A DNA stretch of 64,000 nt, taken from positions 57,621,233 through 57,685,232 of the forward strand of contig CM046853.1 in assembly GCA_025617745.1 (NCBI GenBank), read 5' to 3'. The notes below the pieces were generated by a model. It made no database searches. It saw only the letters and a list, made by a program, of their open reading frames with translations, and was not told the DNA's origin. Positions 19,945 through 56,108 of this stretch are shown here, one piece after another. Numbering within the stretch: the stretch's first letter is position 1; the number at the start of each line of letters is the position of its first letter. Source of the stretch: Heliocidaris erythrogramma (lineage: Eukaryota > Echinodermata > Echinoidea > Camarodonta > Echinometridae). The position numbers and the translations under genes were made by a program.

Positions 19945-20155
19945 ATGTTGCGATGTGTCTCCCTGGGGTTGTGGCTGGTTGCCCTGGTGTGGACCAGTAC
20001 TAGAGCCCAGCCTGACCCTTGTGAGGTTCCTTTAGTGACGGACAGCGGGCAGAAGGACAATTTTACTGTGGTGGATTTAGCTCGAGACCTCTATGCGTGT
20101 ACTATGATCAAGATGATAGACCGCGCCGGACTAGGACCGATGTATCGCGAAAAAG
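19945..20155 (+). CDS. FAS1 gene exon 1
   Basis: Starts at ATG (context AAGAATG) and encodes the signal peptide and the first helices of FAS1 domain 1. It ends in phase 1 at CGC GAA AAA G, followed by GTAGAC. Confidence 0.88.
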
Positions 20156-24690: not shown

Positions 24691-24699
24691 GTATAAGTG

Positions 24700-29000: not shown

Positions 29001-31838
29001 ACACAGTGTTACACAGTCATAAAACAAACAACTATTCTGTGTAGAGGCCAAAACTGGTAGAGGGAAATTGCCTGAAAAAATGTGGAAATGTTAATAATGC
29101 TTCCTTCCCTACATACCACAATTACATGTATCAAGTTTACAAAGTACTTGAATTTCTTAAGCTTTCATTCAATTTATCATCTGTTGTTATTTCCTTTTGA
29201 TAATGGGCCTCCCAACAGAAGTTCATACTTTTCACTGGTTAATATTTGTTATTTACCTTCTTGATGTCTTCCCATGCCTTGAAGCGCTTGAGGAAGTAGA
29301 CTGCTTCCTTGGTCTTCTTGAAGTCTTGGACTTTGTCGCTGACTACAAGGGGTACTTCTGGTGTGCCCATGATCATGTGACCTGTGATTGTCATTGTAAA
29401 CATAGAATGTTATCCACTTCAATGACAAAAAGTGGCCTCAAAAATGTGTAAATAAATTGCAACTGATGATAGTTTTGTCAACAAAGCATAGGCAATGACA
29501 AATTCATAGCAAATGGGTGATTTGAGGATCCGAATTATTCAAGCATATCAACAATGATTCTTGCAGGATATTAATTACCAAGTGACGATCATGTTTGCAT
29601 CCGTGTTTTGTACATTTAAAGAATATAACTGATGTTAACATTTAAAGTTTTGTCATTCCTTTAACCCTAGCTGCACTGGGGGGGGGGGCCTGGGAGGCGC
29701 CCCCCCCCCCCTTCAATTTTTTTGGTGATTGCATCGCGACCGCTGGCAATTTCGGATTCTCGCTTCATGACTTTTTTCCCTGAAGTCTTGCGCACGTTTT
29801 GATACATTTGTCCATATCAGACATACCTAGGGGGTGTTATATGCTAATTAGTATGCGCATGTCATTAAAATTGCTAATCGCTCCATATATTTGTGTACAG
29901 TTACATGCTGTCAATAGACAATGGCTTGCATTTTAATTAGCTAATTATTCAAAAAAATAAAATTGCATAATTGATTAAAATTAATCACACCAGATTCAGC
30001 ATGTGAAGATCTATCGACATGCAAATTTTAAAGTTCATTGGACATTGCGTTTCAAAGATCAATGGGGGGGGGGCCTCCCAGGCCCCCCCCCCCAAGTATT
30101 TTCATGGAGCAAAATAGCCCAGTTCAGTAAGGGGTTCATGTCAGAGCAAAAGAACATGAATAAAGGCAGTAAAAGCATATTTAATAGGAATACAAAGGCT
30201 TTCAAAAACTGTTATGCTAGCCTCCAGTTAACACACCATACTACAATTCTCGCTACCTCAAATATGCAATTTTCGACGTAGAGGGCAATATTATGCATGG
30301 AAATGGTCCGCATCTTCGTCAACTTCACTTCCGGTCCGTATTGAAATACTACGGCTTATGAATAAAATGAGTGCTAAAATGCTTAATTTTTGAATCGCAT
30401 GACATAAACCACTCAAATTTTGAAAATGCAACCAATTGTCTCAATAAATCATGGTATCTTTTCAAACATGTCGGTTAATTTATACTCAAACTCAAGGATT
30501 TTTGTAATACCTGTGTACATTTTCAATGCAAAAAGACAAACACTTGTCGACCCAATCGGGATACTGTCAGCACTGCGCATGCGTGGTTTGCATGACAAAC
30601 GCCATCTGTTGGCGAAATTGTGTATTTGGGGTAGCGAGAATTGAACTATACAATCTTAGACGTTACTTCTGTCTAATACCTTTGGACATGACGAGAGCTG
30701 GGACTGCTGAGGCAGCAAGTGCAGAGCACATGGCAAAGCGCTTCTGGCTGATGTTGGTGCGTGTGTGCCAGCGACGCCAGATCTTGGTAGGGGCAAACAT
30801 GCGTCCACCACGGCACATGTTCCCGAAGGCTCCCTGACCAGAGCGGTGGGTACCACCTCCCCTGACACGGGGGATACGGGCCACAGCACGTCCTGTACCC
30901 CAAGATTCAGCACTGGTCTGGTGACCTGGAGAAAGGATAATGTTATGGAGCCTGTATCAATCTATAGAGTCTTTCACTAAAGGAACACCACATTTATACC
31001 ACATTTAGTTGTTAATTTGGCAGTATGCTTCCTATAGTCAAACATACAGATGCAAGTACAGATAACTTTGCATAAGTCGATTGTGTTGGGACCACAACAA
31101 ATAGTTTGACTAATGCAAAATTACACATATCTTACAGCAATTGGTCGACTTTGAGTTATGCAAGGTTAACTGTAAATATCTCCAATCACTTTGCCAACCA
31201 TGAAATTATGCCATCTGGAAAATATTGAAAAGCTATCAGAAATCTCTTTCAATCCATCTAATATTTAAAGATGAAGCACTTTACATTTTTCATTTCAGTT
31301 TTGCCTTGAAACTTTATTTCACAGATGGGCATACTTTCTCAAGTTCACAAAATCTCAACTGATTAACTCCCTATAACATGGAATGGAGTTCTTATTTTTC
31401 TCTGGATCAGAACTTCAATGTTATCAAGGTCATTCAAAAACACGGACCTGAAGTTGAAGTATCATCACATCACTCGTTACTTTTCCAAATTTCTTACCAT
31501 TTGCAACCTGCATTGATAAATGATTCTACAATCATGACAATATCCCAACAGACTGGCTCCACACTGACTGACAAGCAGCTGACAAAATCTTAACTATTCA
31601 GAATCATGTAATTTTTTGCTTGTTCTATTATCAGTATGTAAGGCAAAAGACTGAGCATACCAGCAATCTTCTTGACAGCGTAGGGCTGACGACTGTTCTT
31701 CCTCATGTTGGTGTGGGCATAGTTGACAATGTCTGGCCTGATTGGTGCCTTGAAGACAGCTGGGAGGGTCACATTGGTTCCAGTAACCTCATTCTTCTCA
31801 TTGTACACTGTAACGAGCGGTCTTGCAGCTGCAACAGC
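25992..31838 (-). CDS. RPL4: 60S ribosomal protein L4 (uL4)
   Basis: Component of the large cytosolic ribosomal subunit whose internal loop lines the peptide exit tunnel. Seven coding exons are identified: 31661-31838, 30680-30925, 29257-29381, 28353-28482, 27614-27770, 26580-26825 and 25992-26066. The product is about 386 residues and aligns along its length to animal L4: [38 protein letters not shown] (tunnel loop), [47 protein letters not shown] and LKLNPYAKT. The C-terminal tail is short and made of repeated Lys-Gly, shorter than the vertebrate tail. Introns are GT-AG and phases match, except that joining 27614 to 26825 leaves the frame one base short (see findings). Codon 1 lies upstream of 31838, because the first recognised exon begins directly with [12 protein letters not shown]. 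Two introns hold U57-like snoRNAs. Confidence 0.95.
26580..26825 (-). CDS. RPL4: RPL4 exon with KKNPLKN block
   Basis: Acceptor CTCCTAG. Encodes [13 protein letters not shown] through ILDKKRG, ending in phase 0 before GTATGT. The bases between the acceptor and ATG (CCTCCC) are one short of what is needed to continue the frame from the previous exon. Confidence 0.88.
27614..27770 (-). CDS. RPL4: RPL4 exon with [10 protein letters not shown] block
   Basis: Acceptor TGTTTAG. Encodes [19 protein letters not shown] to EKSNW, and ends in phase 2 (AA) before GTAAGT, the best donor in the gene. Confidence 0.9.
27980..28059 (-). ncRNA. SNORD57: Box C/D snoRNA, U57-like, copy 1 (RPL4 intron)
   Basis: Lies on the sense strand of the RPL4 intron between coding exons 28353-28482 and 27614-27770. 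Terminal stem TATCCCA/TGGGATA brackets a C box (ATGATGT, one base off RUGAUGA) and a D box CTGA. Immediately upstream of the D box is AACTGATTTAATGAGA. Its AACTGATTTAATGAG is a 15-nt perfect complement to the universally conserved 18S rRNA segment CTCATTAAATCAGTT. The fifth base before the D box would direct 2'-O-methylation to the A in GGCTCA (human 18S A99), the known target of U57/snR51. An internal ATGGAGG, as I recall from human U57, is also present. Confidence 0.85.
28353..28482 (-). CDS. RPL4: RPL4 exon with GKGKMRNRR block
   Basis: Acceptor AATTTAG. Encodes [18 protein letters not shown] to NIPG, and ends in phase 1 before GTTAGT. It sits between the two introns that carry U57-like snoRNAs. 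Confidence 0.92.
28746..28823 (-). ncRNA. SNORD57: Box C/D snoRNA, U57-like, copy 2 (RPL4 intron)
   Basis: Paralogue of the copy at 27980, in the adjacent intron (between exons 29257-29381 and 28353-28482). Terminal stem TCCCA/TGGGA, C box ATGATGT, internal GGAGGTTA, guide AACTGATTTAATGAGA and D box CTGA are all retained. The region after the C box (about 15 bases) and the bases just before the guide differ between the copies. The conserved antisense element argues that both copies are under selection as 18S guides. Confidence 0.83.
29257..29381 (-). CDS. RPL4: RPL4 exon with PLVVSDKVQ block
   Basis: Acceptor ATCACAG. Encodes [18 protein letters not shown] to WEDIKK, ending in phase 0 before GTAAAT. 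The split glycine codon joins it to SKG of the previous exon. Confidence 0.92.
29650..30125. mobile_element. Poly-G/C-ended inverted repeat in RPL4 intron
   Basis: GGGGGGGCCTGGGAGGCGCC near 29680 is mirrored by GGGGGGCCTCCCAGGCCCCC near 30068. The inner sequence is non-coding. Probably a non-autonomous transposon of the poly-G-ended type common in this window. Confidence 0.45.
30680..30925 (-). CDS. RPL4: RPL4 exon with the tunnel loop
   Basis: Acceptor TCTCCAG. Encodes [20 protein letters not shown] through the [13 protein letters not shown] loop to ALVMSK, the most conserved part of the protein, and ends in phase 1 before GTATTA. Confidence 0.95.
31661..31838 (-). CDS. RPL4: RPL4 first recognised coding exon
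   Basis: Acceptor CTGTCTACAG. Begins with codons [12 protein letters not shown], which matches residue 2 onward of animal L4, so the initiator ATG must end the preceding exon. Ends in phase 1 (AAG ATT GCT G) before GTATGC. Confidence 0.92.
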
Positions 31839-32536
31839 CTGTAGACAGGATGACAGAGAAAAAAGTCTGAGTAATCTCTAGTTTCAAGTTATCATCAATG
31901 GTAAAAAAAATTGATTTAATGCAGCAAAAGAGGCAAGCTTTCCCATATCTTGTGGCACAAGATTTACAGATGGACACCTCCAACTAAACTTGATATTGCC
32001 GACTGGTTTTATAAAACAAATACTGTAATTCACGTTTTGTAGCTCGTGCATCAATGATATGCACCACACTTGGCAGAGTCAAAATAAGATGGATAATGAA
32101 CAAGACTTCATTATCTGATTGTGACTAAGCCTGCATGCAGTGCATTTCCACTAATGCACTTGCAACTAGGACCAGCATATTAAAGCAAATTGAAAAAAAA
32201 AGAAGAAAAAAAAAAAGGAAAAAAGTCAAGTCCTAAAGTTTGAAAAGAAAGGCAGGTACCGTTTTTAGGGGAGAGGGTTCAATGACAAAGAATAACAAAA
32301 TGTATCACTCCTTTCACACAAAGACATTAAAGCGCTACTATGTCATAGTAAATCTTAATGTCTTTGTGTGGAAGGAGTGATACTGATGCTGAATTTCAGT
32401 CCCATGATCTGACACAGTTTGCCACGTCTGGAAAAGGCAAGCCAGAGCCAGAGACTGAGAGAGTGAAGTGTATAGATTCAGAAAAGCGCTGAGCAGGTAA
32501 CTTACCTTTCTTTTTCATTACAATTTCCATATATGG

Positions 32537-39435: not shown

Positions 39436-39483
39436 ATGAGCAAGTGGCCTAAATTAATTTTGTTTGGTGACTCGATAACACAG
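39436..39483 (+). CDS. IAH1: IAH1 exon 1 with catalytic serine
   Basis: ATG in good context (ATCACCATGA). Encodes MSKWPKLILFGDSITQ, with the GDS nucleophile Ser13, and ends in phase 0 before GTAAAA. A GC-rich block with many CpGs follows at about 39570-39730 in intron 1. Confidence 0.9.
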
Positions 39484-42400
39484 GTAAAAGATTCTCACTG
39501 ACTTTTAAAATATCAGCTGCAGCTCAGTCTTTACACTCAGTCTAGGCTCTAGCAGCTCAAGCAAAGCTCAGCCAAGTCGGCGCGGCCGCGGGCCGGCTGG
39601 TCGTGATCCTGCCGCACTAGACCTGGCTTGGCTATCATATGGTCTGGAGCTGCAGTGCAGGCTCCGAAGACGCCAGCCGGCAGCGCTTGGTCAAGTTGGT
39701 GCCAGCCGCCCAGCGCGGCGGCAGAAAACCGTTAGGTGTAGGACGTCATGCACCTAACAATATATATAGTTGCAATTGAATGAGTGTGTGTTACTTTGGC
39801 AAGTTTGGGGCCTGGACTCTATTCGGCATTATTGTGGTTGAGGAAACCACCAATCCATTTATTCACTCCGCACAGATCGAGTGACAGACAGTCTTGACTG
39901 AACTGAGAAGCGCTTCAAAGTTCACTTCAAAGTTCAAGTTCAATTTGTTCAAAGTTCACTTCAAGTTCAACTTAAGTCGCAACTAAGTTCAATCCTATTG
40001 TCTTGAAAAAGACTATTGTCATTGAACTATTCCTAGACAGAAATAACCGTCTGTTAATTGTTATGGGGAAATCTTTAAATATTTCTGACATTTCTCAACC
40101 TTCCCCATAGCATAGGCATAGGCATAGGCATAGACAGACGGTACGACCGTATATCACGGCTTATTTATTTTTTTTTTTAGGTTATAATATTATGTCTAAA
40201 ACTTTTATAAGTAAAACATTTTGTAAAAAATTAATTTGAAATAGAATTAGGCCTAGGGCTTACCTAGGCCTAGACCGAAATTTTCTGTCTCCAGTACGTT
40301 AGCCTCTTATTTGGGTAGGGTCGGCTACTACTTGGAGACAGAAGCCGTCCTATCACTTTGCTGTGCAAAATTTGTCTATGGCGTTGTGCCGTTCTAGTCT
40401 CGTACAAGGCAAAATGATTATGAAGGAAAAAATACGATAAATTCATTACGAACTCGTGCACATTGATTTCAAAACGGTTATTTCTTTAACATTAAATATG
40501 TTTGTTTAGTGTTAAAGAAATAACCGTTTTGAAATCAATGTGCACGAGTTCGTAATGAATTTATCGTATTTTTTCCTTCATAATCATTTTGCCTTGTACG
40601 AGACTAGAAGCTCGGGTAACGGTTTGAATACGGCTGCAGGATTTTCGAACGGAGAAGACCTTGGACCCTGAATTACATGAAAAAGGAGCATTAAATGGAT
40701 CATTTGGTCAAATTGGTATGTTGAACAGATTAAGTATATGAATTAGAGCCTAGGCCTTATGATTATTTTTAAAAAAATACAGAGGAAAAATGATTTTTTC
40801 CTACTGTTCCAGCAGGCACAACGCCATATAAAAGGCATAGACAAATTTTGCACAGCAAAGTGATATGACGGCTTCTGTCTCCAAGTAGTAGCCGACCCTA
40901 CCTAGACCGAAATTTTCTGTCTCCAGTACGTTAGCCTCTTATTTGGGTAGGGTCGGCTACTACTTGGAGACAGAAGCCGTCATATCACTTTGCTGTGCAA
41001 AATTTGTCTATGCCTTTTATATGGCGTTGTGCCTGCTGGAACAGTAGGAAAAAATCATTTTTCCTCTGTATTTTTTTAAAAATAATCATAAGGCCTAGGC
41101 TCTAATTCATATACTTAATCTGTTCAACATACCAATTTGACCAAATGATCCATTTAATGCTCCTTTTTCATGTAATTCAGGGTCCAATGTCTTCTCCGTT
41201 CGAAAATCCTGCAGCCGTATTCAAACCGTTACCCGAGCTTCTAGTCTCGTACAAGGCAAATTGATTATGAAGGAAAAAATATGATAAATTCATTACGAAC
41301 TCGTGCACATTGATTTCAAAACGGTTATTTCTTTAACACTAAACAACATATTTAGTGTTAAAGAAATAACCGTTTTGAAATCAATGTGCACGAGTTCGTA
41401 ATGAATTTATCGTATTTTTTCCTTCATAATCATTTTGCCTTGTACGAGACTAGAACGGCACAACGCCATAGACAAATTTTGCACAGCAAAGTGATATGAC
41501 GGCTTCTGTCTCCAAGTAGTAGCCGACCCTACCCAAATAAGAGGCTAACGTACTGGAGACAGAAAATTTCGGTCTAGACCCTACCCAGATTAAGAGGCTA
41601 ACGTACTGGAGACAGAAAATTTCGGTCTAGACCCTACCCAGATTAAGAGGCTAACGTACTGGAGACAGAAAATTTCGGTCTAGGGCTTACCATGCTTAAT
41701 AGCACAGTAGCAGCCGGCTACGACGTCCGTTCGCTATGTTTCGGATACTGCACTGTTAACGCGTACGCCACTGAATGCATGCTACACACTCAAACACACT
41801 GCAAACACACAGAGAAATAATAAAATGACGATCTTCCTTGAGAACCACTTCCGGTTCCGGGGTCAATTCTATGATCTGCACGTACATGTAGCCAGGATTG
41901 GCTTCGTGAATGTAAAAAAAAAAAAAAATGGCTATACGCCTTCTACATCACGAAGCCAGGCGTTCTTACCCAGCAATCAGATTCCGCACGGGTTAGCAGG
42001 ACATGAAAATGCCCTGAAATCACACTTTTCTGATAGTTTCCGCGACCCACAGCGTTTCCTCCTAGGGAAACGTTTGCAATGAAAATTTCTTTTTGATTGA
42101 CTCTAATTTTAGTAAAAAATCCCCCAAAGAGCATAAGAAATTTCAGAGAACTCACCAGCGTTTGCGTATCCATGCCTCCGGGGTCATGCAGATCCAAAAT
42201 GGCGGCACTGTCGATCATCGAAACTATGAGGCGCTGTTTGTAGATTTATTATTTAGCTCAATTATTTACATATAATTCACTATTTAGCTCTTTTCTACAA
42301 TAATTATAATATAAAATGACATAAAGGATACAATTTTTCATAAATAATGAATTTTGCAATTTCCATAATTTATAATGAATTTGTGAAATCATTATTTATA

Positions 42401-45400
42401 AAAAATGTAAATTATAAAATTCATTATATATAAATAATTGTATCCTTTATGTCATTATAATAATTGTAGAAAAGAGCTAGGCGTAAATAGAGAATTATAT
42501 GTAAATAATTGAGCTAAATAATAAATCTACAAACAGCGCCTCATAGTTTCGATGATCGACAGTGCCGCCATTTTGGATCTGCATGACCCCGGAGGCATGG
42601 ATACGCAAACGCTGGTGAGTTCTCTGAAATTTCTTATGCCCTTTGGAGGGATTTTTTACTAAAATTAGAGTCAATCAAAAAGAAATTTTCATTGCAAACG
42701 TTTCCCTAGGAGGAAACGCTGTGGGGAAGGGTCTGTGGGTCGCGGAAACTATCAGAAAAGTGTGATTTCAGGGCATTTTCATGTCCTGCTAACCCGTGCG
42801 GAATCTGATTGCTGGGTAAGAACGCCTGGCTTCGTGATGTAGAAGGCGTATAGCCATTTTTTTTTTTTTTTTTACATTCACGAAGCCAATCCTGGCTACG
42901 TACGTGCACGTATGTGAGCATTCAGTCTCATTGTTCGGACATGACGGAGGTCTCGTGGAGCCAGACGTAGTCTCAGCGGAACAACCGATGATACAGAGAG
43001 ACTGAAGCTTTTGGTCTAGTTCAATCCTAACTGTAAGAGCTCCTTGGCAGGTCTGATCAGTTGTTTTTTTTTTACCTTGCACAGGTAAATTGTATATATG
43101 GGACAATACACATGCAAGGTAGGATTTGTGTATTCCCATATATACAAGTTACACATGCAAAAATTGCAAGGTAAAAAAAGCTTTTCACACCTGCCAATTT
43201 TTGTTTTTCGTTTTTCTTTTTTATTCATTCAATTTCTACAATCTTAGTTGATCCTGGAAGGTAACCCTTTAGCACACCACGAATAGTGGTCATATTGACC
43301 ACTACGAATACAATATGCAAAAATAGTTGTAGTAAAGGTATGGGGGGGAAAATAAGAAATATTTTAAATACTTGCTTTCAAATTCAGGCCTTAAAAATTT
43401 CACTCCTACTTCAAATGGCCGTTAGGAAGAACTTTTGATATTTTCAGCAAAATCCAAAGTCAAAATCTTGTCCAAAACCGGAGAAATCCCCGCCGATTTG
43501 TTTCGCGATCGCGCGTTGTTTACATACTGCCGATGTCTTAGACTAAAATTTTTGTCCACGAAAAAACTCGGGATCGCAAGCGCACATCGATCTTTACGAT
43601 CGCGCACACAGAAAATCGAGACTTTTCCGTGTATGCCACAGGGACCGAATTTTTAAGGTTCGGTGTAAAAATGCCAGAGGTAAAAATGCCAGAGGTAAAA
43701 ATGCCAGTGGTAAAAATGCCAGAGGTAAAAATGCCAGTGGTAAAAATGCCAGAGGAATAAATGCCAGAGGTAAAAATGCCAGTGGTAAAAATGCCAGAGG
43801 TAAAATGCCAGTGGTAAAAATGCCAGAGGAAAAAATGCCAGAGGAAAAAAATGCCAGAGGTAAAAATGACAGAAGAAAAAAGGCAAGAGGAAAAAATGCC
43901 AGAGGTAAAAATGACAGAGGAAAAAAGGCCAGAGGAAAAAATGCCAAAGGTAAAAATGCTGGAGGTAAAAAATGCTAGTACCCACCCGGCCCGGATATAG
44001 CAGGCATGTATTATTTGCCACTCGCTTTCAGCTGACGACCCTTTTTGATTAAACACTTCAATATTATATATATATATTTTTTTATTCAGTTTGAATATAT
44101 CTGCATATTGTTTAGAACTTAATGTGCATGAGCCCCCCCCCCCCCCCCCCCGTATTAATGTTGACGAGGCTGTAATGCTTGATGTTTGATGTGTGACGAT
44201 TTGTTTCGCGATCGCGCGTTGTTTACATACTGCCGATGTCTTAGACTAAAAATTTTTGTCCACGAAAAAACTCGGGATCGCAAGCGCACATCGATCTTTA
44301 CGATCGCGCACACAGAAAATCGAGACTTTTCCGTGTATGCCACAGGGACCGAATTTTTAAGGTTCGGTGTAAAAATGCCAGAGGTAAAAATGCCAGTGGT
44401 AAAAATGCCAGAGGTAAAAATGCCAGTGGTAAAAATGCCAGAGGAATAAATGCCAGAGGTAAAAATGCCAGTGGTAAAAATGCCAGAGGTAAAATGCCAG
44501 TGGTAAAAATGCCAGAGGAAAAAATGCCAGAGGAAAAAAATGCCAGAGGTAAAAATGACAGAAGAAAAAAGGCCAGAGGAAAAAATGCCAGAGGTAAAAA
44601 TGACAGAGGAAAAAAGGCCAGAGGAAAAAATGCCAAAGGTAAAAATGCTGGAGGTAAAAAATGCTAGTACCCACCCGGCCCGGATATAGCAGGCATGTAT
44701 TATTTGCCACTCGCTTTCAGCTGACGACCCTTTTTGATTAAACACTTCAATATTATATATATATATTTTTTTATTCAGTTTGAATATATCTGCATATTGT
44801 TTAGAACTTAATGTGCATGAGCCCCCCCCCCCCCCCCCCCCCCCCCGTATTAATGTTGACGAGGCTGTAATGCTTGATGTTTGATGTGTGACGACCTGTA
44901 CATTTGTTGAAGAAGGGAGAACTGAAAAAGAAAAAAAAAGTGCAGGTACAAGTACAGATAGCGAAAAGCAAACTAGTCAAGATCATTTGGTACAAGTTAT
45001 TTTACTACAGGTACAGGTATTGTGTCCTTAAGTTATACAGTTAGTATCATGATGCGGGGGGCATCTCGTTTTGGCGAAGGTTCGTATTTCCGAAACGATA
45101 ATTTCCCATGCCTGGGGGTTCAAAATTCCGAACATTTGTTGCATTATTCCGAAGGTTCGTTATTCCGAAGGTTCATTTTTCCAAAGGTTCATAATTTCGA
45201 AAAGGTTCATAATTTCGAAAAGGTTCATATTTACCCACAAAAGGACTGTCCCACATTAGGGTGATGTCATTTTTGCATACCTCCTTTCCCTTCTCGAAAC
45301 CTAAAATTCAGTTGCAGACTTCCTTCTCGTTCCAAATTCCATTCGGGATAATGAAATCGTACGTCGATCAAAAAAAGGCCGGGTCTACGATCTGGAGTCG

Positions 45401-48400
45401 AGAGTCCAACAGTTCGACAAGAAAAACTCGGTCTAACCAAATAGTCTAAAAAGTAAAATACAAGCAGATGTCAGGTCTGCTTCTTGACCTTCTTTATATT
45501 TGACATCTTGATTTTTCACCTATATTCTCCTAGTATGCAGTTGGCATATTTTGCCTCTTTACTTTTTGTTCCTGACATCACCCATCGCGTGTTTATCTCA
45601 TTTTACCTCTTGCATTTTTATCTCTGGTATTGTTTGCTCTGACATTTTTTCCTCTGGCATTTTTACCTCTGTCATTTTTTCCCTCTGGCATTTTTACCTC
45701 TGGCATTTTTTCCTCTGGCATTTTTACCTCTGGCATTTTTACCTCTGGCATTTTTTCCTCTGGCATTTTTACCTCTGGCATTTTTACCTCTGGCATTTTT
45801 TCCTTTGGCATTTTTACCTCTGGCATTTATTCTTCTGGCATTTTTACCTCTGGCATTTTAACCTGGCACCATTTTTAAGGACAAAACTCTTTTGGGGAGA
45901 TGTCAGCGCCCGCGGCGACAAGGAAATGTACACAATGACTCCGATAGCTCGTTTCGCGAGAATCGACAGTAAATTACGAATTTCATTTTTGGAAATATCT
46001 TTTCCAACATCGGTGAGTTGAATTTATTGTATTTCTTGAATATTTTGGGGTCGGTTTTTGTAAATTAAATGCCGATTTTGAGTGAATGTTGGTGACTTTT
46101 GTGCAGTGGTGTTTTAAAAAGTTGAGGTGTATGACTGCCTAGATTATACACACAAAGTATAGGAATGTAGCTATGAGTGCCCTTTAGCAAACTCCGATCG
46201 TTTCCTGGTGCAGGCGATTCATAATTGTACTTAATGGGCTTTCCAGCACCTATCCAAAGCACATCAGCAAGCAATGGTCATATTGACCATTAGGAAATAT
46301 ACATGTGTGTATACTGGGTATTGGGGATACAGACGTAATTTTGTTTCAAATGGAGGTTTTTGTGGGCAAACTGATACTTAGGTTTCATTCTATATATATT
46401 AATTTATAAGTTCGTTAAGATACAAAATGTAGAAAGTTATAAAAACATTTACAACCTTCTTTTTCGTAGTTGTTACAGAGACATCCATACGTATGACGAC
46501 TGCTCTCAATATGTTGCGCACTAGTGAGGCCGCTCTATATGGTTATGCACCATAGATACGTACACAGAATGTTACGCACACAAGCTATACGGACAAGGTC
46601 GATATTACGACGACGGGTGGCCGTTCTCTCCCAAAGACTTTTTCAATTATTGCTCCTCGCCGTTAAAGCACTTTGCTTAATATCCTTGCACCAGAAGGAA
46701 TACAGAATGTAGAGAATGCACGATGAGAAGCCTTATCGCTAGACTAAACTCATTAACAACCCCCAAGCTGTCTTAACAACAGGTAAACAACGAGGTGGAG
46801 ATCGATGATCCGATCGCGCCGGTACCACTACGAGCGCTGAGGGCTCCCTTCATCATAATCGTGAAAAATACAAAATGGATGCTCTGACCGGATCTCGATA
46901 GGTGATTTCGCAAGAAATTCCCCGAAATTTCAGGAAACCCTCTTCAAAAGTGACAAAACAAACTGGTAAGTTTTAATCATCTATTATTCACCATAATTAG
47001 CTATCTTTCAGTACATTTCAACCAAAGGTTTTCACTTAAATATAGCCAAAAATGCAGAGTGATACATATTAGTACCGTACTGACTATTGCCTGCGTTCCT
47101 GCACAGTTGGCAATGGCGTGTGCCTATGAGTGATCCAAAGCTACTTCAAAACTGTGCACACTTGGAACAGGAATGGTGGTGTTGTGAAGATTATTCCATG
47201 GTTTACGTATTCGTACATAGAAAGAATTTTTGTATCTCTGAGTTTTGGTCCTAGGAATAAACAATTTTTTACTATGTCCTCTTGTCTGATCTCTGGATTG
47301 TAATTCAAGATTTGGTGTTACATCAGAATCGTATTTATTAAAAATCTTGTACGTTTCAATCATATCGCCTCGAGCCATCCTGTAAGCTAAGGTAGGGATA
47401 TTCAACTTCCTCAATCTTTGTGCATAAGGCAGCCCCTTTAAAGGCCAAGTCCACCCTAACAAAAAGTTGATTTGAATAAATAGAGAAAAATCCAACAAGC
47501 ACAACACTGAAAATTTCATCAAAATAGGATGTAAAATAAGAAAGTTATGGTATTTTAAAGTTTCGCTTAATTTCGCAAAACAGTTATGCACATCCTGCTC
47601 AGTATGCGAATGAGGGAACCAGTGACGTCACCCACTCACTATTTCTTTTGTATTTTATTACATGAAATACGAAATATTTTAATTTTTCCTTGTTATAATG
47701 TAAAACAAGGATTGATTCCTCGCTGAACATGTGTAATTGCCATTGTTGCAACCTATACGCAATTCAATGAGAGCTTCCTAATTGTAAAATCTGCAGAAAT
47801 TAAAATCTATATTTCACATAATAAAATACAAAAGAAATAGTGAGTGGGTGACATCACTGGTTCCCTCATTTGCATACTGAGCAGGATGTGCATATAACTG
47901 TTTTGCGAAATTAAACGAAACTTTAAAATACCATAACTTTCTTATTTTACATCCTATTTTGATGAAATTTTCAGTGTTATGCTTGTTGGATTTTTCTCTA
48001 GTTGAATAAGTCATAAAGAAATGTGAGAAAATTACAATGCCCCGACCGGGATTCGAACCCGGGACCCTGGATTACATTACAAATTCAAATTGTCCTCTAA
48101 AGAAATTCGTTGGCATGGATTTGCCCGACTTTAGAGGGAAGACCTGTCTCATTGGTAGGCCATTATAGCGTACGCATGGAATTGGTATGGATGTACCCCC
48201 TACGCTCGATGGAAAGAGAGGGGCTATATGTGAGATTGTTACTTTGCTTCGACGGGAGCCCAGATAGCTCATGTAATCATGTAATCCAGTAATCCATGTA
48301 AATGTGAGAAAATTACAATGCCCCGACCGGGATTCGAACCCGGGACCCTGGATTACAGGGAGCCCGGATAGCTCAGTTGGTAGAGCACTGGTCATGTAAT

Positions 48401-51400
48401 CCAGGGTCCCGGGTTCGAATCCCGGTCGGGGCATTGTAATTTTCTCACATTTCTTTATGACTTATTCAATTTACTTCAATCCTATCAATTATGATATTTT
48501 CTCTATTTATTCAAATCAACTTTTTGTTAGGGTGGACTTGGCCTTTAACTCTGGACTAATCTAGTTGCTCTTCTTTGGACATTTTCCAAAGCATGTATAT
48601 GTTTCTTAAAGTAGAACTTTAATGATTTTAAATATTGGCTTAATACTTATTATTGCATAGATGGCATAAATTAAACAAGGTTATCCAAATTCAACGCTTG
48701 GAAACATTTGAAGTAATGATTATTATCAATTATAAAACGGTAAAATACAGCCCCCGATATATCAGCCGAAGAGCTCCTCGAACGCTGCTGAGATATGTGA
48801 CGACACACCATGGACCAGTCCTGTCTAAGCAGACGATGTCCCATAACATCTTACACATTTTTCAGAGCCTATTTTGTGATCTCCTCTTCACTTATTTCTC
48901 TTCCTTCACTAGCGTCAGTCTTAATGTTAGTCTGTTGCCTCACTCTTAACTTTGTGTATGGTATTATTTTGATGAAAAATGCAGCGTTAAAAAAATAAAG
49001 GAATCAGTCACTTGTAAACAAAATAAGACGCCATTGTATTTTCAGCTGCTTGCACCGGGGCATGTTCGGCGTTTCAAGAGGGAACGAATACCATCCTGCT
49101 ATTATTCGGAGGGCTTTTCAATTTGAAAGTGGGGTTTATTTCATTGATCATTGACCCTTCTCCTGTGTATTTACAATCAAACGGTTTTAGCTATCAGAAT
49201 CAGTTTCACTTTCCCTTTATAATGGTGTGAAATAAGGTCATGTTTAAATACACCAAACTCTTTATAATTTGATAAATAATTGCATTGCAATTACGTTCAT
49301 TCATTATAGGACGTCGTCTGCTTAAGCAGGATCAATCCCGAGTGTGACGACATCAAAACATCGCTATATTTCTGGCGAATCCTCGGATATTCCAGATGCT
49401 GAGAAGAGCTTTTATTTGTGTTGTTTTTATAATCATCAGATACGCAGTTGACATAAAACTTATACGATTGCCATCTGTAAGCTTCCCAGTTTCTAGTGAT
49501 ACATTAATTGCCATATTTGTGATTTTCTTTGAATAGCTACTTTAAGGTGGGGGCTCCACACAGCATGAGCATACCCTATTTGGGGGCAAACAAGCGATTT
49601 GTACATGAGTGAAAAAGTATCCTTGTACAGTCTAAATAAACAAAGGTTTGTCTAATTAAATTCATTAGTCTGTTTGCGTTATTGATCTTTGTATGTAAAT
49701 GTTCTTCAAAAGTTAGCTTATCATCAATCACCACTCCCAAATCTCTCTCAGATGCTTGAGGGCACTTTGTGAATTATCAATATCACTAGTCATATTATAC
49801 ACATATGGACTTGTCAGGGCAGACTTGGGGTTACCAATGATGAGAACACTACATTTCTTAGGGTTGAATCTAAGCAGCCATTTGTCAGACCAGCATTTGA
49901 GCCTATCAAGATTCTTCTGAAGGGCAATACAATCCTTCTAATTTGTTATGGACTTGAAAATATATGCACTACTCTCAGAAATCGTGTCATTGGTTTCCTC
50001 ATTCCACGTCCATAGACCATGCATTTTATTTTTGCGTGCTATCGAACAAGTGGTTTCCTCAACCACGATATAGCCATCTACTCATGCAATTCATTAATTC
50101 TAGGATTAGTTCAGGAGGTCAAGAATCGTAGAAATCTAAAGCCAGGCAAAAAGCTATGGCCCGTATGGGCATGATTGATGGGGGACAGTTTTGGGCAATC
50201 CTGCACTATTATTGCGCAATTGAATTTAGTATACTGCAATCAACGATGGAGGCAATTTCCCATCGGCAGCCCAATAGGCCTTGAAAAATTATTTTGGTCT
50301 CGGTTCGGGATTGCTCGATGCACTCATCCAATGTACGAGGTTGTGATATAACCTAGACTACGGTATTCCTCTTTCATGTCTTTCATTACAGGTACTCTGA
50401 AACTTAGTTTTCGTACTACAGTCCAGATGACAGGGCATTAATAAAAGAGAAATTAATAAGATTTCGATTTAAATTAAATATATTGACAATGGATCTAATT
50501 CATTTCGTAATAAACATACCAACATCACCTAGATTGAGATATTATTATATTATACTAGTCTACATTTTATTTTATTTTATACAGCGGTCGTTTGAGCCGG
50601 GAGGATGGGGTGCATCAATCGCTGATCAAGTTCAGAGGTAAAATAATTTGAAGTTTGATGGTGACTGAATGCACATCAAATGGTCAATGGTCAACAGGGA
50701 AAGCAACTCGATCAATGTTGGTAGATGCTGCATTTGTACGCAAGCATGTACTGTAAACAAAAAATATTATACAGTCTACTTCTCGGCTCTATCCACTTGT
50801 TTTACTTTGTGTGCATTTGTTTTGTGAAATAACTATTAATACTAGAACTTCATATTGTGTCTCAAAAGCCATTTGTTTTAGTAGATATGTACTGCCTTCC
50901 TTAAGGAGCTTGCACCTTTAATTCTTATCAATGAAAATTTAGCGTCATATGAATGCTATGAATCATATAATAACAACCCCCACCATCATCATCATCATTA
51001 TCAGTACCACCACCACCATCACCTTTATCATTCATAATCATGAAAAACATCACTATCATTACCATCGTCATCATCACCATGATCACCATCACCACCATCA
51101 CCACCATCATCGTCATCATCACCATTACTATCGTCATGCATCTTAGAGACTATTTCTGCATTTTAAAAGATCATATTGTGATCTGGTAATAATGAAAATA
51201 GACTTGAGCGACATCCAACGCAACACATTTTTAAAGACACCAATGAACCAAATTGATTTTGATAGAAATTAGATGAAATTCTGATTAATTTGCTAAATAG
51301 AAATACATTATAGCAGCATTTGTGACAATTTGGCAATTATCACCAGGTAATGACTAATCATTTTAAACTTGTCCCAGATCATTATCATTGGTCTGGAATT

Positions 51401-54400
51401 TGGCTGTCTGGTCAACAGTTACCTCTCAATGATTTTTAGTCCTTTTTTTCTCCTTTGTTTAACTACACATGAGAACTTAAGTCAAGAATACCTGAAATTA
51501 AGATGAACTTATAGATAAAAAACTTTTTATTTTATTTGTACCCCTTTTCATTTCTTTCCCCAGAAAATGTGATATCATTTGTAGAGGATTCTCTGGCTAC
51601 AATTCTAAATGGGCATGTGCTGGCATGCAGTACATTCTTCCCTGCGAATTACTGCAAAATATTGCCATGGCAACTGTATTCTTTGGTGCAAATGATGCAT
51701 GTTTACCAGAACTGCAGCCAGAGAAGCATGTGCCTGTGGCAGACTATACCAAAAATATAAAGGTAGGATTGTGTGACATCTAGAGAATGTAGAACTGGAG
51801 AATTACTCCAGTTGTCAGCAGTAATCCTGGAACCCTGGCCAGGGTGCAAAATGAAATTTAGGGCAAGATTTAGAGCCTTGAAAACTCTGAATGATTTACT
51901 CACATTTTCTGGATCACAATGGATGTATTTTTGCTTGCTTTTTTGGTTGCTGTGCATGCTTGTTAGCATTTAGTATTTGATTGATTTGCATAAATAATTG
52001 GCTGTACGGCATGGGACGGACAGCCATGAGACTGACAATGTCGATCTAGTGAACCCTCAAAAAAGTTGTCAGAATGCCCATGTTCGTCTTGTAGGCTGTT
52101 TGTCTTGGAGGCTGTCAGTCTAATGGGATGTCCCAAAATATTTGGTAATTTGGGTATCTTGACTTTTGAATAGTGAAGACAATGACTACTGATAATCACC
52201 ATTCATTCTTATCCACAAAGGACTTGTGCATTAACAAGATTTTCAGCTCAATCTCTTTCTCACTAGTCCATTCACTTTCATGTTCATGTATATTCTGAAT
52301 CAGCCTTTAATTCTATTTCTCACAAAAATGTCTAAACCCTCGGCTTTAGATGGAGTTGATTAGTACATCAACTTATCAAGCTGAAGCAAAATTGAAATGC
52401 ATCAGAGTTTGAAAGAAATTAAGTACTGTACATGTGATTTATTGGGATCTTTCAGGAAATGTGATGTTGTGAACAGAGGTTTTTCTGGGTACAATTCCCG
52501 TTGGGCTCGCATGATCATGCAGACTGCCTTGCCTCCAGACCTCCTCAAAGACGCGGTTGCCATGACAGTGTTTTTGGGTGCTAACGATGCTTGCTTGCAA
52601 GAGGTGTGGCCATGTCAGTTTGTAGGTGTCCAGGATTATGCTGACAACATGAAGGTTAGGATTCAATAGTTAGTAGGTGCTAATGTGCTTTTTTATGCCC
52701 CCTGTGTCCTGAGTTTTCAAAACCCTGTTGAGGTACATGTTCAGATGTTGCAGGGTAACATACGAAAGCACATTAGCACCTACTTTGTAGATGTTATTAG
52801 AATTTGTTGTTCACTCTGATTTTTTGTTTGTCTGTTTTTGTTTTGTTTTGTTATCAATATAAATCCATTTAAGTCCATTAATTATCTCAAGCTTAGTATC
52901 TAACCAGTTCAGTTTGCAGTTCAGCGTCCTGTGTTGTTGGTTTTTTAATAACCAGTAATATAGCAGACTGACTGATATATGTATATATATTGCAGTTTTG
53001 AAAATGTCATTGTTCAAGGCAGGATGCTATAAAATGTCTCCACTTTCACAACTAATGGACTTCGTACAATACTTGTTTTAAAGAAAACCCAACTGATTAT
53101 ACTTGTCCAAATATTGATGTATTTTTGATTAACCAAAGAGCAAAAGCCATTTTAATTTGCTTGGCAGCTGACAAATTTGAGATGTGGAGATAATGATATA
53201 AAGATACCCTTTGATGCACTTGTAACTACCGGTAATCTTTTTTGTTTAGAATGTCTTTATTGGTGTGTATGTGGGTGCTTGTGTGTTTTTTCCATCTCAC
53301 AATTTGTAGAAAGTAGAAATTATTGGTCTGTGCAAATGCTGCTTGCATGTACATCTTCAACCTGTATTTTTGTTTCTTTTTCAAAGGCAATTGTGCAGTA
53401 TCTCGAGAGTAATAGCATTCGCAAAGAGAAGATTCTGCTGATCACACCTCCTCCAATAGATGAAGCAATGTGGGGTGAAGCCTGTAAAGAAAAAGGTATT
53501 CTTAAAATTTTTGATATTGGCTGTACTCTGATCTGGGCACTTTTTCATAAAACAAGGTATCATTGACAACTGCCCCATTTCTATGAGAAATTTGCTCTCA
53601 GCCAATCAGATATGCAAGTATTTCAGTACCTTATAACTGTTAATCAAGCTTGAGTTGGTTCATACTTTGATTACGGTAAAAAGTTACTGATGTACATGTA
53701 CTCAGCTGGTATAAAAGTGGTTTTTTTTTTAAATATTTCTATGCAATGAATATATTTTTAGAAAAAAAAAAGGGGGGTGGAAGAACTACTAGTTTGGTGA
53801 AAAGGTCTTGATAAAACAGTCAGAAATAGCCAATTCCCATAATTGTTTCAAACCGTATCGAGTCATTTAAAAAAAATTTCTACCAGGGCAGGGAGGTATT
53901 ATCTGGGGGGGGGGGGGAATCACTCACCACATTACGTGCTACGCAACCGTGTTCACAAAAAGCGTCAAAAATGGTATGTTTTCAGCCTTTAGGCATCGTC
54001 AACGTTTTCCTTAAAAAAAGGGTGCTTTTCAGCTTCATTCGCCATTTAGAGTACTAAATAACAAATTAAGTCTGTGACATTTAGGGTATGAATTGCATGA
54101 TCATGAGTATTTTGTTGATATGAATAACAGCGATTGGTGATTTGGATTGTTAGCATACAAATTAAATATGATATCACTAAAAGTTTATCTGTTTGTACTC
54201 AAAAAGCTTTATTTTGTTGTTTTTCCTGCTTAATAGGGGTTATTTAATTTAAACGCCATTGTGGGTATTGTACTAGGTACCTAAATAATTTATACGCCAC
54301 TTAGGGTATTTTTGGGTGGCATGATGACCCTGTTGACGCCATTTAGGGTATGTTTTTCTGATATGACGCTGTATAGGGTGCAAATTAGACTTCGTGCAAT

Positions 54401-56108
54401 ACGCCATTTAGGGTCCATTTTTGAAGTGTGTGGACGTGCTTGGGTAGCACATTTGTGTAAGAGTGACCCCCCAGGGGTATTATTGACCATACAAGCTTAA
54501 ACATTTTTTTTTTTCACAACAGGTGTAGCTCTGAATAGGACATTGAAAAATTCAGGGATTTATGCCAAAGCTTGCGTTACCTTAGCACAGGACATGGACA
54601 TAAAGGTGATTGATATATGGACCGCAATGCAGAATGAAGAGGTAAGCGGTGTAAGAGCAAGACAGCTTGCACCATTCTCCAAAAGTACTAGTCAAATGTT
54701 GCAGAGAAAGCAAGCCTCCCCAAAATTTTAAAGCAGTTTTGGCTTCCAAGCCCCCTTTCCACCCACCCCTCGAAAAATGAGTTTGACCGAATCTGGACTT
54801 GTGTAGATTGTTTATTTCCTTCTAGGAAGAGAGGCAGTATGGAGGGATAGTCTACAACTCAAAACTTGTGAAACTTATTAAAATGCAAAAATTGAAGCTA
54901 TAGGTATAGTGTACAAATTTTCTTCTGTTTACTAACTAACAACGAAAGTCCATGATTTTTATGCCTCCGTCCAGCGAAGGTGGTGCCTGAAGCATTATGT
55001 TTTCGGGTTGTCGGTCCCGCTCTCTTGTTAACGCGGTATCTCAAGAACCGTTTGAGATATGAACTTTAAACTTGGTGATAGGATGTATCACCATGGGAAG
55101 ACGATCTAATTTGATATTTGGGGTATGAGGTCAAAGTTCAAAGGTCATTGAGGTTAATTTCTAAAACTTCAGGTCTTAGCTTTGTTAAGCTCAAGTACCA
55201 TTTCAGATATGAACTTCAAACTCTGTACGAGTATGTGTTATATGAAGACGATCTGATTAGATTTTGGGGTATGTAGGTCAAAGTTCATAGGTCATAGAGG
55301 TCAATTCTAGAATTGCAGGTTTTAGCCTCGTCAACAGGATATCAAGAACCATTTGAGGTATGAAGTTCAAACATTTACGTACATGTAGGTCAAAGGTTAT
55401 AGAGGTCAGTATGCAGTGTTTTTTTTTATATCACAATATTCCTTTTGTACTAGAAGGAGATAAAGTGATCAGACTTTTGGTTTATTAGGTCATATGTCAA
55501 AGTGGTCAATTAATTGTAGGCTTCTTATATTGGTTATCAATATTTCAAGAACAGTTTGAATCATGAAGTTAATTGAATTTAGGCCAAGGCAGATAAGAGA
55601 CGCATTCGCATTCATCTTGTTTTTTGTAATTACTCTGTTTTATAAAACTGTAAAGTAAATGATATGTAAACAGTAAAGTTCTAAATTGTCTGAATTCTTT
55701 AAGGTCTTGTAAAACAAAAATGGAAAACAAAAATGATCTGTGGTGTTTCATTGTTTTATTTTGGCTTTCTGAACAAAATAAAATATGTCGGTTTGAAAAG
55801 ATGACACCCTAATTGAATGGACAATGCAGGTTAAGTGAACGTACACACAATATGCAACATGTACTATATTCCTGTGCTATTAGACTTCATTGTAATTGTT
55901 TTTCCTTTCCTTTTTGTTCTATTCTTGGTAGAACTGGGGTCAGCGATTCCTTTCCGATGGTCTCCATCTCTCAGCGGAAGGAGCTGGCTTCCTCTACAAG
56001 CAGATGTCCGGTTTTGTGGAAGACTGCACATCCTCTCTACCTCAGCAGTTCCCTGACTGGAGTGAAGTGGACTATGCCAATCCAGAGAAAAGCTTCCAGC
56101 AGAGTTGA
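39436..56108 (+). CDS. IAH1: SGNH/GDSL-type esterase, isoamyl acetate-hydrolysing esterase 1 family
   Basis: Predicted cytosolic hydrolase of short-chain esters. Coding exons 39436-39483, 50585-50637, one of two alternatives (51564-51762 or 52456-52654), 53387-53495, 54523-54641 and 55932-56108 total 705 nt, 234 residues; human IAH1 has about 248. Catalytic blocks are all present: LFGDSIT with nucleophile Ser13 (exon 1), block II Gly42 in RGFSGYN, block III GAND with Asn77 (alternative exon), and DGLHLS with Asp185 and His188 (last exon). LLITPPP (exon 4) and DIWTAMQ (exon 5) are family signatures. There is no signal peptide. Intron 1 is 11.1 kb and filled with repeats. Phases are consistent at all junctions. 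Confidence 0.92.
40262..41690. mobile_element. Multi-dyad inverted-repeat element in IAH1 intron 1
   Basis: The CCGAAATTTTCTGTCTCCAG segment occurs forward at about 40274 and 40909 and inverted three times at about 41550-41690, where a roughly 52-bp unit (TAAGAGGCTAACGTACTGGA) is tandemly repeated. Perfect local dyads are centred at about 40500 and 41345, with arms of about 100 bp containing GTGCACGAGTTCGTAATG. A wider symmetry centred near 40950 pairs most of the left half with the right half. Non-coding; the termini (CTAGGGCTTACC) are inverted repeats. Confidence 0.8.
41878..42911. repeat. 1-kb palindrome carrying two first-exon-like segments
   Basis: Arms 41878-42345 and 42434-42911 are near-identical inverted copies around an AT-rich spacer. 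Each arm contains an ATG-initiated 21-codon frame ending at a strong GTGAGT donor: 42552-42614 (plus) and 42156-42218 (minus), both starting MIDSAAILDLHDPGG. Each also has a CAAAATGGCGGC box resembling a YY1 site, on the strand opposite the frame. This looks like a gene 5' end captured into, or duplicated as, an inverted repeat. The parent gene was not recognised. Confidence 0.8.
43045..43200. repeat. Foldback hairpin related to the centre of the 32.5-kb palindrome
   Basis: TTTTTACCTTGCACAGGTAA is mirrored by TTGCAAGGTAAAAAAAGC, with TATATGGGACAATACACATG and its inverse between them. It shares GGCAGG(T)GTGATCAG and ACAAGTTACAC(A/G)TGCAA with about 32775-32885. Confidence 0.6.
43495..44896. 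repeat. 703-bp tandem duplication spanning a transposon boundary
   Basis: Unit 1 (about 43495-44197) and unit 2 (about 44198-44896) are nearly identical. Each contains the last part of the repA left half, the TTTTTAAGG target copy, the 15-bp array and inner unique sequence up to TGTGTGACGA. Units differ mainly in the number of 15-bp repeats and poly-C length (about 18 versus 26). Confidence 0.85.
43659..45871. mobile_element. TU-like foldback transposon with 15-bp repeat arrays
   Basis: Flanked by 9-bp duplications TTTTTAAGG (43650-43658 and 45872-45880), inserted in repA copy 2. The left terminus is an array of the 15-bp unit TAAAAATGCCAGAGG (about 43664-43978, repeated at 44368-44672 after an internal duplication). 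The right terminus (about 45595-45866) is the same unit in inverted orientation. The interior is non-coding, with poly-C, (TA)n and TTCGGAAT-type repeats. This matches the outer-domain structure of sea urchin TU elements as I recall them. Long open frames across the arrays are artefacts because 15 is a multiple of three. Confidence 0.85.
46192..47130. other. IAH1 intron 1, no feature recognised
   Basis: Non-coding intronic sequence. AATGGTCATATTGACCATTA near 46274 echoes the hairpin at the start of repA. Confidence 0.35.
48038..48078 (-). pseudogene. tRNA-Thr-like 3' half, antisense copy 1
   Basis: Antisense copy of the 3' half of the tRNA-like sequence at 48362: 3' acceptor strand, perfect T arm and part of the anticodon arm. 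The rest is absent. A second such half (48319-48357) lies next to the full-length unit. Confidence 0.7.
48319..48357 (-). pseudogene. tRNA-Thr-like 3' half, antisense copy 2
   Basis: Second antisense 3' half, followed within five bases by the plus-strand full-length copy, so the two form a hairpin of about 40 bp arms. Confidence 0.7.
48362..48433 (+). tRNA. tRNA-Thr(UGU)-like gene or pseudogene with U33 replaced by A
   Basis: Cloverleaf visible: acceptor GCCCGGA/TCGGGGC (one mismatch), D arm GCTCAGTTGGTAGAGC, anticodon arm CTGG-T CATGTAA TCCAG, and perfect T arm CCGGG TTCGAAT CCCGG. The anticodon arm closely matches tRNA-Thr(UGU), but the invariant U33 is A. A and B boxes are intact, so it may be transcribed, but decoding function is doubtful. 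It is embedded in a transposable element. Confidence 0.55.
50585..50637 (+). CDS. IAH1: IAH1 exon 2
   Basis: Acceptor TTATACAG. Encodes RSFEPGGWGASIADQVQ, with the GGWG motif shared with human IAH1, and ends in phase 2 (AG) before GTAAAA. Confidence 0.9.
50978..51130. repeat. (CAT/CAC)n microsatellite in IAH1 intron 2
   Basis: Imperfect ATC/ACC triplet repeat; the His-rich and Met/Val-rich open frames are artefacts. Confidence 0.9.
51564..51762 (+). CDS. IAH1: IAH1 alternative exon 3a
   Basis: 199-nt exon with acceptor CTTTCCCCAG and donor AAG/GTAGGA. It starts in phase 2 and ends in phase 0. Encodes KCDIICRGFSGYNSKW through VFFGANDACLPEL to VADYTKNIK, keeping block II Gly and block III GAND. 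It differs from 3b at an asparagine conserved in human IAH1 (Cys instead) and in the helix after it. It is uninterrupted and about 57% identical to 3b by eye (38 of 67 residues). Confidence 0.85.
52456..52654 (+). CDS. IAH1: IAH1 alternative exon 3b
   Basis: 199-nt exon with acceptor GATCTTTCAG and donor AAG/GTTAGG, the same phases and length as 3a. Encodes KCDVVNRGFSGYNSRWARM through VFLGANDACLQEV to QDYADNMK and is the copy closer to human IAH1, with NRGFSGYN kept. If spliced after 3a it would read GAA ATG TGA and stop, so the two are incompatible in one mRNA. Confidence 0.9.
52668..52795. mobile_element. Small MITE in IAH1 intron
   Basis: AGTAGGTGCTAATGTGCTTT at the left and AAAGCACATTAGCACCTACT at the right form perfect 20-bp inverted termini about 13 bp downstream of exon 3b. 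Confidence 0.75.
53387..53495 (+). CDS. IAH1: IAH1 exon 4
   Basis: Acceptor TTTTCAAAG. Encodes AIVQYLESNSIRKEKI, then LLITPPPIDEAMW to CKEK, ending in phase 1 before GTATTC. Confidence 0.9.
53535..53650. mobile_element. MITE-like fragment (family of 7340-7495)
   Basis: Shares CATAAAAC(A/T)(A/T)G(G/T)TATCATTGACAA-type ends, TTATAACTGTTA and CAATCAGAT segments with the element at 7340. Non-coding. Confidence 0.4.
53980..54420. repeat. Dispersed ACGCCATTTAGGGTA degenerate repeats
   Basis: CGCCATTTAGGGT-like words recur at about 54041, 54253, 54294, 54337 and 54400 at irregular spacing within IAH1 intron 4. No coding potential. Confidence 0.5.
54523..54641 (+). CDS. IAH1: IAH1 exon 5
   Basis: Acceptor TTCACAACAG. 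Encodes VALNRTLKNSGIYAKAC to VIDIWTAMQNEE, ending in phase 0 before GTAAGC. Confidence 0.9.
54957..55600. repeat. Repeat with tandem AGGTCAAAGGTCA-like motifs, copy 1
   Basis: Internally repetitive, period roughly 125-130 bp. Each period has a TATCTCAAGAACC(G/A)TTTGAG-like segment, ATCACCAT(G/A)GGAAGA, and AGGTCAAAGTTCA plus GGTCATAGAGGTCA. A second copy is at 58378-59010. The half-site pairs resemble nuclear-receptor DR1 elements. Located in IAH1 intron 5. Confidence 0.65.
55932..56108 (+). CDS. IAH1: IAH1 exon 6 (terminal) with catalytic Asp-His
   Basis: Acceptor TTCTTGGTAG. Encodes NWGQRFLSDGLHLSAEG, with Asp185 and His188 of the triad, and ends at TGA 56106-56108. Confidence 0.92.
   Translation, partial: NWGQRFLSDGLHLSAEGAGFLYKQMSGFVEDCTSSLPQQFPDWSEVDYANPEKSFQQS

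What the first reader, a model, noticed from the sequence alone, without database searches (positions are those of the whole stretch)
51564..52654. Predicted mutually exclusive tandem exons encode two versions of the IAH1 catalytic core
Seen: two homologous 199-nt exons lie 693 bp apart, each with good AG and GT sites, each entering in phase 2 and leaving in phase 0. Both are uninterrupted and keep RGFSGYN and GAND. Inclusion of both gives GAA ATG TGA at the 3b start, and skipping both also breaks the frame, so only one can be used. About 57% identity shows old duplication with both copies still selected. Inference: two esterase isoforms with different substrate pockets, because the block II neighbour (Asn in 3b, Cys in 3a) and the helix after it differ while Ser13, Asp185 and His188 are shared. 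I know of no described case in this family.
Basis: partly seen in the sequence, partly recalled or inferred. Interest (0 to 1): 0.85.

Follow-up and report, generated by a model that had tools for sequence, protein, structure and literature searches.

The report
Either-or exon pair in esterase gene
An animal gene for a small ester-splitting enzyme carries two old, still intact versions of the exon that builds part of its catalytic core, and the reading frame allows only one at a time, so the gene probably makes two different enzymes.

Summary
An IAH1-type SGNH/GDSL esterase gene (+ strand, 39436-56108) has two homologous 199-nt exons, 3a (51564-51762) and 3b (52456-52654). Either one gives an open 234-aa protein with Ser13, RGFSGYN, GAND, Asp185 and His188. 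Both together stop at codon 103; neither stops at codon 52. The copies share 37 of 66 residues, synonymous sites are saturated, dN is 0.42, and 0 of 2,000 neutral simulations per starting exon kept as many residues. The 3a isoform matches yeast IAH1 slightly better than 3b, so 3a does not look decayed. U12 sites and short-intron crowding do not fit; frame filtering plus competition between a strong and a weaker exon fits best. A second genomic copy, about 287 kb away, has identical 3a, 3b and splice sites but a frame-breaking 11-nt insertion in exon 1. No RNA data or other species could be consulted; different substrates remain an inference. New member of a known kind; my searches found no such case in this family.

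The parts
39436..39483 (+). exon 1, start codon and block I (GDS, Ser13)
50585..50637 (+). exon 2, ends in phase 2
51564..51762 (+). exon 3a, version 1 of the core segment (blocks II and III); donor AAG|GTAGGA, strong pyrimidine tract
51763..52455 (+). intron between 3a and 3b, 693 nt; too long for donor/branch-point crowding
52456..52654 (+). exon 3b, version 2 of the core segment; donor AAG|GTTAGG, weak pyrimidine tract (9 of 16)
52672..52784 (+). intronic hairpin, 26-nt arms 92% complementary, beginning after 17 intron bases; candidate regulator of 3b (inferred)
53387..53495 (+). exon 4
54523..54641 (+). exon 5
55932..56108 (+). exon 6, block V (DGLH: Asp185, His188) and stop TGA 56106-56108

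Best explanation
This is an IAH1-type SGNH/GDSL esterase gene with two mutually exclusive tandem exons. Each productive mRNA takes exon 3a or exon 3b, giving two 234-aa enzymes that share the catalytic Ser, Asp and His but differ in 29 of the 66 residues that carry the two oxyanion-hole blocks and the stretches between and after them. Shown here: gene structure, frame logic, homology, and constraint on both copies. Inferred: that both are spliced in vivo; that 3a, with the stronger splice signals, is the default exon and 3b the regulated one, perhaps through the hairpin beside its donor; that wrong combinations are removed by nonsense-mediated decay; and that the isoforms differ in substrate preference or kinetics.
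For: Each single choice is fully open, while both-in and both-out hit stops at codons 103 and 52, 418 and 173 nt upstream of the last exon junction. Codon positions differ at 26, 17 and 43 of 66; pS 0.876 (saturated), dN 0.415; in neutral simulations 0 of 2,000 runs per starting exon reached 37 residues, and 5.5% and 4.5% were free of stops. Yeast IAH1 (3mil_A): isoform 3a 99.6 bits, isoform 3b 93.9 bits. Both isoforms pass the gathering cut-offs of PF00657 and PF13472. Of 29 differing sites yeast agrees with 3a at 8 and with 3b at 6. The splice sites are GT-AG and none looks U12-type. In the second genomic copy both exons with 30 nt on either side are identical, and exons 2-6 stay open.
Against: No transcript evidence was available. 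No orthologue could be examined: searches found none in the collections offered. The 3a isoform scores lower than 3b on PF13472 (66.5 against 77.2 bits), and exon 3a alone matches no Pfam family while 3b alone gives a sub-threshold match. The human sequence that I recalled agrees with 3b at 8 and with 3a at only 3 differing sites. 3b has a poor pyrimidine tract, so it could be rarely used; its donor, though, scores above those of exons 2 and 4. No docking/selector pairing beyond shuffles was found. The second copy of the gene has a frame-breaking insertion in exon 1. The identity of 3a and 3b in that copy is weak evidence of constraint, because the intron between them is also nearly identical (2 mismatches in 675 aligned sites).
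Confidence: 0.86

Rival explanations
1. One of the two exons is a dead or dying duplicate that is no longer spliced.
For: No RNA evidence for either. 3b has a weak pyrimidine tract. 3a lowers the PF13472 score and alone matches no Pfam family. The other genomic copy carries an exon 1 frameshift.
Against: Both are open with intact splice sites. dN is far below saturated dS, and 0 of 2,000 neutral runs per starting exon kept as many residues. Yeast IAH1 sides about equally with each (8 and 6 sites), and the 3a isoform scores higher against yeast.
Confidence: 0.07
2. Both exons are used, but the pair works mainly as a switch for expression level: double inclusion or double skipping gives a transcript that is degraded, and the protein difference matters little.
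For: Both non-productive combinations hit early stops well upstream of the last junction. In human, joining reads were found for 83 of 377 clusters with lengths not divisible by three (PMC5740500, passages).
Against: Old protein-level constraint on two different sequences is not needed for such a switch; one copy would be free to lose its frame.
Confidence: 0.12
3. Assembly or haplotype artefact: 3a and 3b are two alleles placed side by side.
For: The region does occur twice in the assembly, 287-289 kb apart, so near-duplicates are placed side by side in this assembly.
Against: 3a and 3b are 57% identical in DNA with dissimilar introns (35% and 32% over 60 nt on either side), and both occur in each copy of the region.
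Confidence: 0.01

Closest known systems
COQ-2 exons 6a/6e (C. elegans, other helminths, annelids, molluscs; PMC7434440, passages seen)
   Same: Mutually exclusive homologous exons swap part of an enzyme core; reported there to switch the substrate.
   Different: Different enzyme (polyprenyltransferase), supported there by RNA-seq and by exon removal; here neither splicing nor substrate is tested.
CYP4F3 (human; seen only as cited in PMC7434440)
   Same: Alternative splicing changes the substrate specificity of one enzyme.
   Different: Cytochrome P450; tissue-specific splicing with alternative promoters, by the cited titles.
PKM exons 9/10 (abstract start of PMC3498831 in a search listing); ketohexokinase 3A/3C (recalled)
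   Same: Either-or exons in a metabolic enzyme gene.
   Different: Other enzymes and folds.
Yeast IAH1 (PDB 3mil)
   Same: Same family: matched over residues 4-207, E 9.3e-26 (3b isoform) and 1.6e-27 (3a isoform).
   Different: One form of the core in the solved chain; exon choice was not looked into for yeast.

Membership tests
Mutually exclusive tandem exons | Neighbouring homologous exons of similar length and identical phase | tested here: met
   199 and 199 nt, phase 2 in and 0 out, tblastn E 1e-21 to 2e-21
Mutually exclusive tandem exons | Only single inclusion gives a productive reading frame | tested here: met
   Single choices 234 aa; both-in stop at codon 103, both-out stop at codon 52
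Mutually exclusive tandem exons | Junction reads from each exon to the shared neighbours | not testable with these tools
   No RNA data available
Mutually exclusive tandem exons | Known enforcing mechanism: steric, U2/U12 clash, competing RNA pairing, or frame shift with decay | tested here: inconclusive
   693-nt intron and U2-type sites argue against the first two; no pairing beyond 12 shuffled sets except a local hairpin; the frame rule fits but decay is untested
IAH1-type SGNH/GDSL esterase | SGNH blocks I (GDS), II (Gly), III (GxND), V (DxxH); block names recalled | tested here: met
   GDS 11, GFSG 42, GAND 75, DGLH 185 in both isoforms
IAH1-type SGNH/GDSL esterase | Best similarity to IAH1 among solved structures, over most of the protein | tested here: met
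   3mil_A E 9.3e-26 and 1.6e-27; next hit 1yzf_A E 3.9e-4 and 3.4e-6
IAH1-type SGNH/GDSL esterase | Hydrolysis of short acetate esters | not testable with these tools
   needs an enzyme assay

The most novel reading that the evidence does not exclude
The exon choice switches the substrate class of one esterase gene: 3a and 3b make enzymes with different ester preferences, selected by tissue or stage, with the hairpin beside the 3b donor as part of the switch. It would be another case, rare in print, of splicing that swaps an enzyme's oxyanion-hole segment.
Probability: 0.35. Interest if true: 0.7.

Novelty: new member of a known kind. Interest (0 to 1): 0.5.

Why it matters
Exon choice that replaces part of an enzyme's catalytic core is uncommon; the COQ-2 paper says its authors know few other examples (PMC7434440, passages). 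Here two versions of the same 66-residue segment have been kept long enough to saturate synonymous sites, in a family whose function in the mouse is called largely unknown (PMC7224509, passages). Two natural variants of one core on an identical scaffold would make it easy to test which residues set substrate choice in IAH1 enzymes.

Tried and rejected
Relatives: profile scans of genome contigs and viral contigs and tblastn against plasmids found none, so no independent conservation profile could be made. Competing RNA pairing: tile-by-tile duplex scan of the three introns around 3a and 3b against 12 shuffled sets; only the hairpin after 3b (-54.0 kcal/mol) exceeded all of them (lowest -50.8). 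Third exon copies: none in the window at E below 0.4. Processed retrocopies that would show a spliced form: the genome search with an exon 2-3a-4 peptide gave 7 matches, all at the two genomic copies of this gene. Copy-to-copy divergence as a test of constraint: rejected as weak, because substitutions vary from 0.3% to 11.9% between introns. Literature, open-access papers only: 'isoamyl acetate-hydrolyzing esterase' with 'mutually exclusive' 0 papers; with 'alternative splicing' 2 papers, titles and abstract starts unrelated. Other searches listed no such case, but their lists were capped in part: 11 of 11; 15 of 5,096; 15 of 66; 12 of 24; 25 of 55; 7 of 7; 5 of 5; 10 of 6,105.

Full report
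OBSERVATION. The gene model on the + strand is exon 1 39436-39483, exon 2 50585-50637, 3a or 3b, exon 4 53387-53495, exon 5 54523-54641, exon 6 55932-56108. One search used boundaries one base different for exons 4, 5 and 6; the protein is the same. Either choice gives an open 234-aa protein. Both together stop at codon 103 and neither stops at codon 52; these stops lie 418 and 173 nt upstream of the last exon junction (from the junction positions). By the usual rule for nonsense-mediated decay (recalled) both would be degraded. tblastn of each exon finds the other at E 1e-21 to 2e-21; the next match in the window is at E 0.44.

WHAT IT ENCODES. Both isoforms match yeast IAH1 (PDB 3mil_A) over residues 4-207: 93.9 bits with 3b and 99.6 bits with 3a; the next solved structure, 1yzf_A, has E 3.9e-4 and 3.4e-6. 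Both pass the Pfam cut-offs of PF13472 and PF00657; on PF13472 the 3b isoform scores higher (77.2 against 66.5 bits), on PF00657 they are level (70.0 and 70.5). The exon 3a peptide alone matches no Pfam family, and 3b alone gives a sub-threshold PF13472 match. GDS, GFSG, GAND and DGLH start at residues 11, 42, 75 and 185 in both. Exon 3 carries blocks II and III, the oxyanion hole of SGNH enzymes (recalled); Ser13, Asp185 and His188 are in shared exons.

BOTH COPIES ARE UNDER CONSTRAINT. 3a and 3b share 37 of 66 residues. Differences by codon position are 26, 17 and 43 of 66. pS is 0.876, beyond saturation, and dN 0.415. Placing the same number of base changes at random kept at most 28 residues in 2,000 runs from each starting exon (observed 37), and 5.5% and 4.5% of the runs were free of stops. 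The introns beside the two exons show no clear similarity (35% and 32% over 60 nt, ungapped) (all). If 3a had drifted since the duplication it should have lost its likeness to the family; instead yeast IAH1 agrees with 3a at 8 and with 3b at 6 of the 29 differing sites. With two sequences that I recalled rather than fetched, human agrees with 3a at 3 and with 3b at 8, and Arabidopsis with each at 5; the human count leans towards 3b. In the same recalled comparison 3a and 3b are closer to each other (84 bits) than to human (67 and 73 bits), which suggests a duplication after the split from vertebrates. These recalled comparisons are leads only.

SPLICE SIGNALS. Scored with a recalled human-like donor matrix, 3a (AAG|GTAGGA) scores 8.5 and 3b (AAG|GTTAGG) 6.7, at the 99.0 and 97.3 percentiles of the 936 GT sites in the gene; exons 2 and 4 score lower still (6.0 and 3.4). 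The pyrimidine fraction before the acceptor is 0.94 for 3a and 0.56 for 3b, against 0.81-0.94 for exons 2, 4, 5 and 6. So 3a looks like the exon used by default and 3b, mainly through its acceptor, like one that needs help. By eye none of the donors resembles the U12 consensus (recalled), and the 693-nt intron is much too long for donor/branch-point crowding, which PMC5740500 (passages) puts at under 50 bp. That paper reports, among 629 human clusters, 5 splice-site-type clashes, 57 possible steric cases and 377 clusters with lengths not divisible by three; this gene falls in the last and commonest class.

HAIRPIN. A hairpin at 52672-52784 begins after the first 17 bases of the intron that follows 3b: arms of 26 nt, 92% complementary; the stretch 52655-52800 folds at -53.1 kcal/mol, z -6.3, with 0 of 200 shuffles as stable. 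A scan for pairing between the three introns gave nothing else beyond 12 shuffled sets. In the second genomic copy the hairpin keeps its pairing; two changes in the right arm (GCACC to GTGCC) turn two pairs into wobble pairs. It may regulate 3b or may be a small inserted inverted-repeat element. The genome search with this stretch found only the two copies of this locus, with the tool's caveat that very common words are skipped; the arm pattern search did not complete.

SECOND COPY. The genome (1.06 Gb, 26 contigs) has a second copy of this region 287-289 kb downstream on the same contig. The stretches I fetched match window 16-5189, 15276-25016 and, with gaps and insertions, 26330-63079; the parts opposite about 5.2-15.3 kb and 25.0-26.3 kb were not fetched. 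Colinear pieces covering 37,775 window bases average 95.7% identity, from 84.6% to 99.7%. The copy includes the end of a ribosomal protein L4 gene (2 matches in the genome). L4 is normally single-copy (recalled), which favours a second haplotype left in the assembly. Against that, the match stops near window 63079: stretches sampled beyond it (L025, L026 against L024, L027) gave 0 matches in 4 comparisons. So a true recent duplication is as possible, and I leave it open. In that copy 3a and 3b, with 30 nt on either side, have 0 mismatches; exons 2, 4, 5 and 6 have 1, 1, 6 and 1; the introns from exon 2 to exon 6 have 1.7, 0.3, 4.9, 11.9 and 11.5% substitutions. Exons 2-6 stay open, with 9 nt and 5 aa differences, none in 3a or 3b. 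Against a simple story, its exon 1 has an 11-nt insertion that breaks the frame after the start codon used here, so this copy may be a null allele, a decaying duplicate, or may start elsewhere.

HOW IT MOST LIKELY WORKS. Shown: two intact, constrained versions of the core exon, and a frame rule that allows only one. Inferred: the splicing machinery picks 3a by strength unless 3b is favoured by a regulator, possibly through the hairpin; wrong combinations are lost to decay; the isoforms differ in pocket residues and therefore in substrate preference or kinetics. The 29 changes lie just before block II (38-40), between blocks II and III (49-74) and after GAND (82-99); which of them line the pocket was not determined.

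NOVELTY. Either-or tandem exons are a known kind. Exon swaps in an enzyme core with changed substrate are called rare in PMC7434440 (passages), which names CYP4F3 as the most notable other example. I found no report for IAH1 or SGNH esterases, which cover open-access papers and in part capped lists. Public gene annotations may already list such isoforms; I could not check.

On rechecking, one search was added, the claim that the whole window is duplicated was narrowed, the haplotype reading was put back to undecided, and the Pfam results against 3a were added. For the last reason I moved one hundredth of confidence from the best explanation to the dead-exon rival.

Noticed in passing
G000:C1 57909646-57972727 versus window 16-63079 (parts): The region has a second copy 287-289 kb downstream on the same contig, averaging 95.7% identity over the 37,775 window bases compared; second haplotype or recent duplication, undecided.
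   Followed up: partly
joined L019+L018, bases 5819-5877 (second copy of exon 1): An 11-nt insertion shortly after the start codon breaks the reading frame in the second copy of the esterase gene.
   Followed up: partly
window 47450-48550: A tRNA-Thr-like sequence (48362-48433) with inverted partial copies beside it inside a larger inverted repeat (seen), perhaps a foldback mobile element carrying tRNA-derived sequence.
   Followed up: no
window 16691-16763 and 17270-17341: Two tRNA-Arg (TCT) genes or relics about 580 bp apart.
   Followed up: no
window 43547-43978 and 44245-44667: Two near-identical tracts of short repeats (frame reading ARGKNASGKN), with a related tract near 45512-46021 in the opposite orientation.
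   Followed up: no
window 13931-15193 (-), 20646-21023 and 22275-22622 (+), 26532-26825 and 31590-31877 (-): Neighbour genes: a rhodopsin-type GPCR in one open frame, two fasciclin-domain stretches, and ribosomal protein L4 (C-terminal match strong, N-terminal match below Pfam's cut-off).
   Followed up: partly
G000:C19 35080238-35110460: Nine GDSL-family matches on one strand, several about 2.25 kb apart, look like a tandem array of other GDSL hydrolase genes.
   Followed up: no
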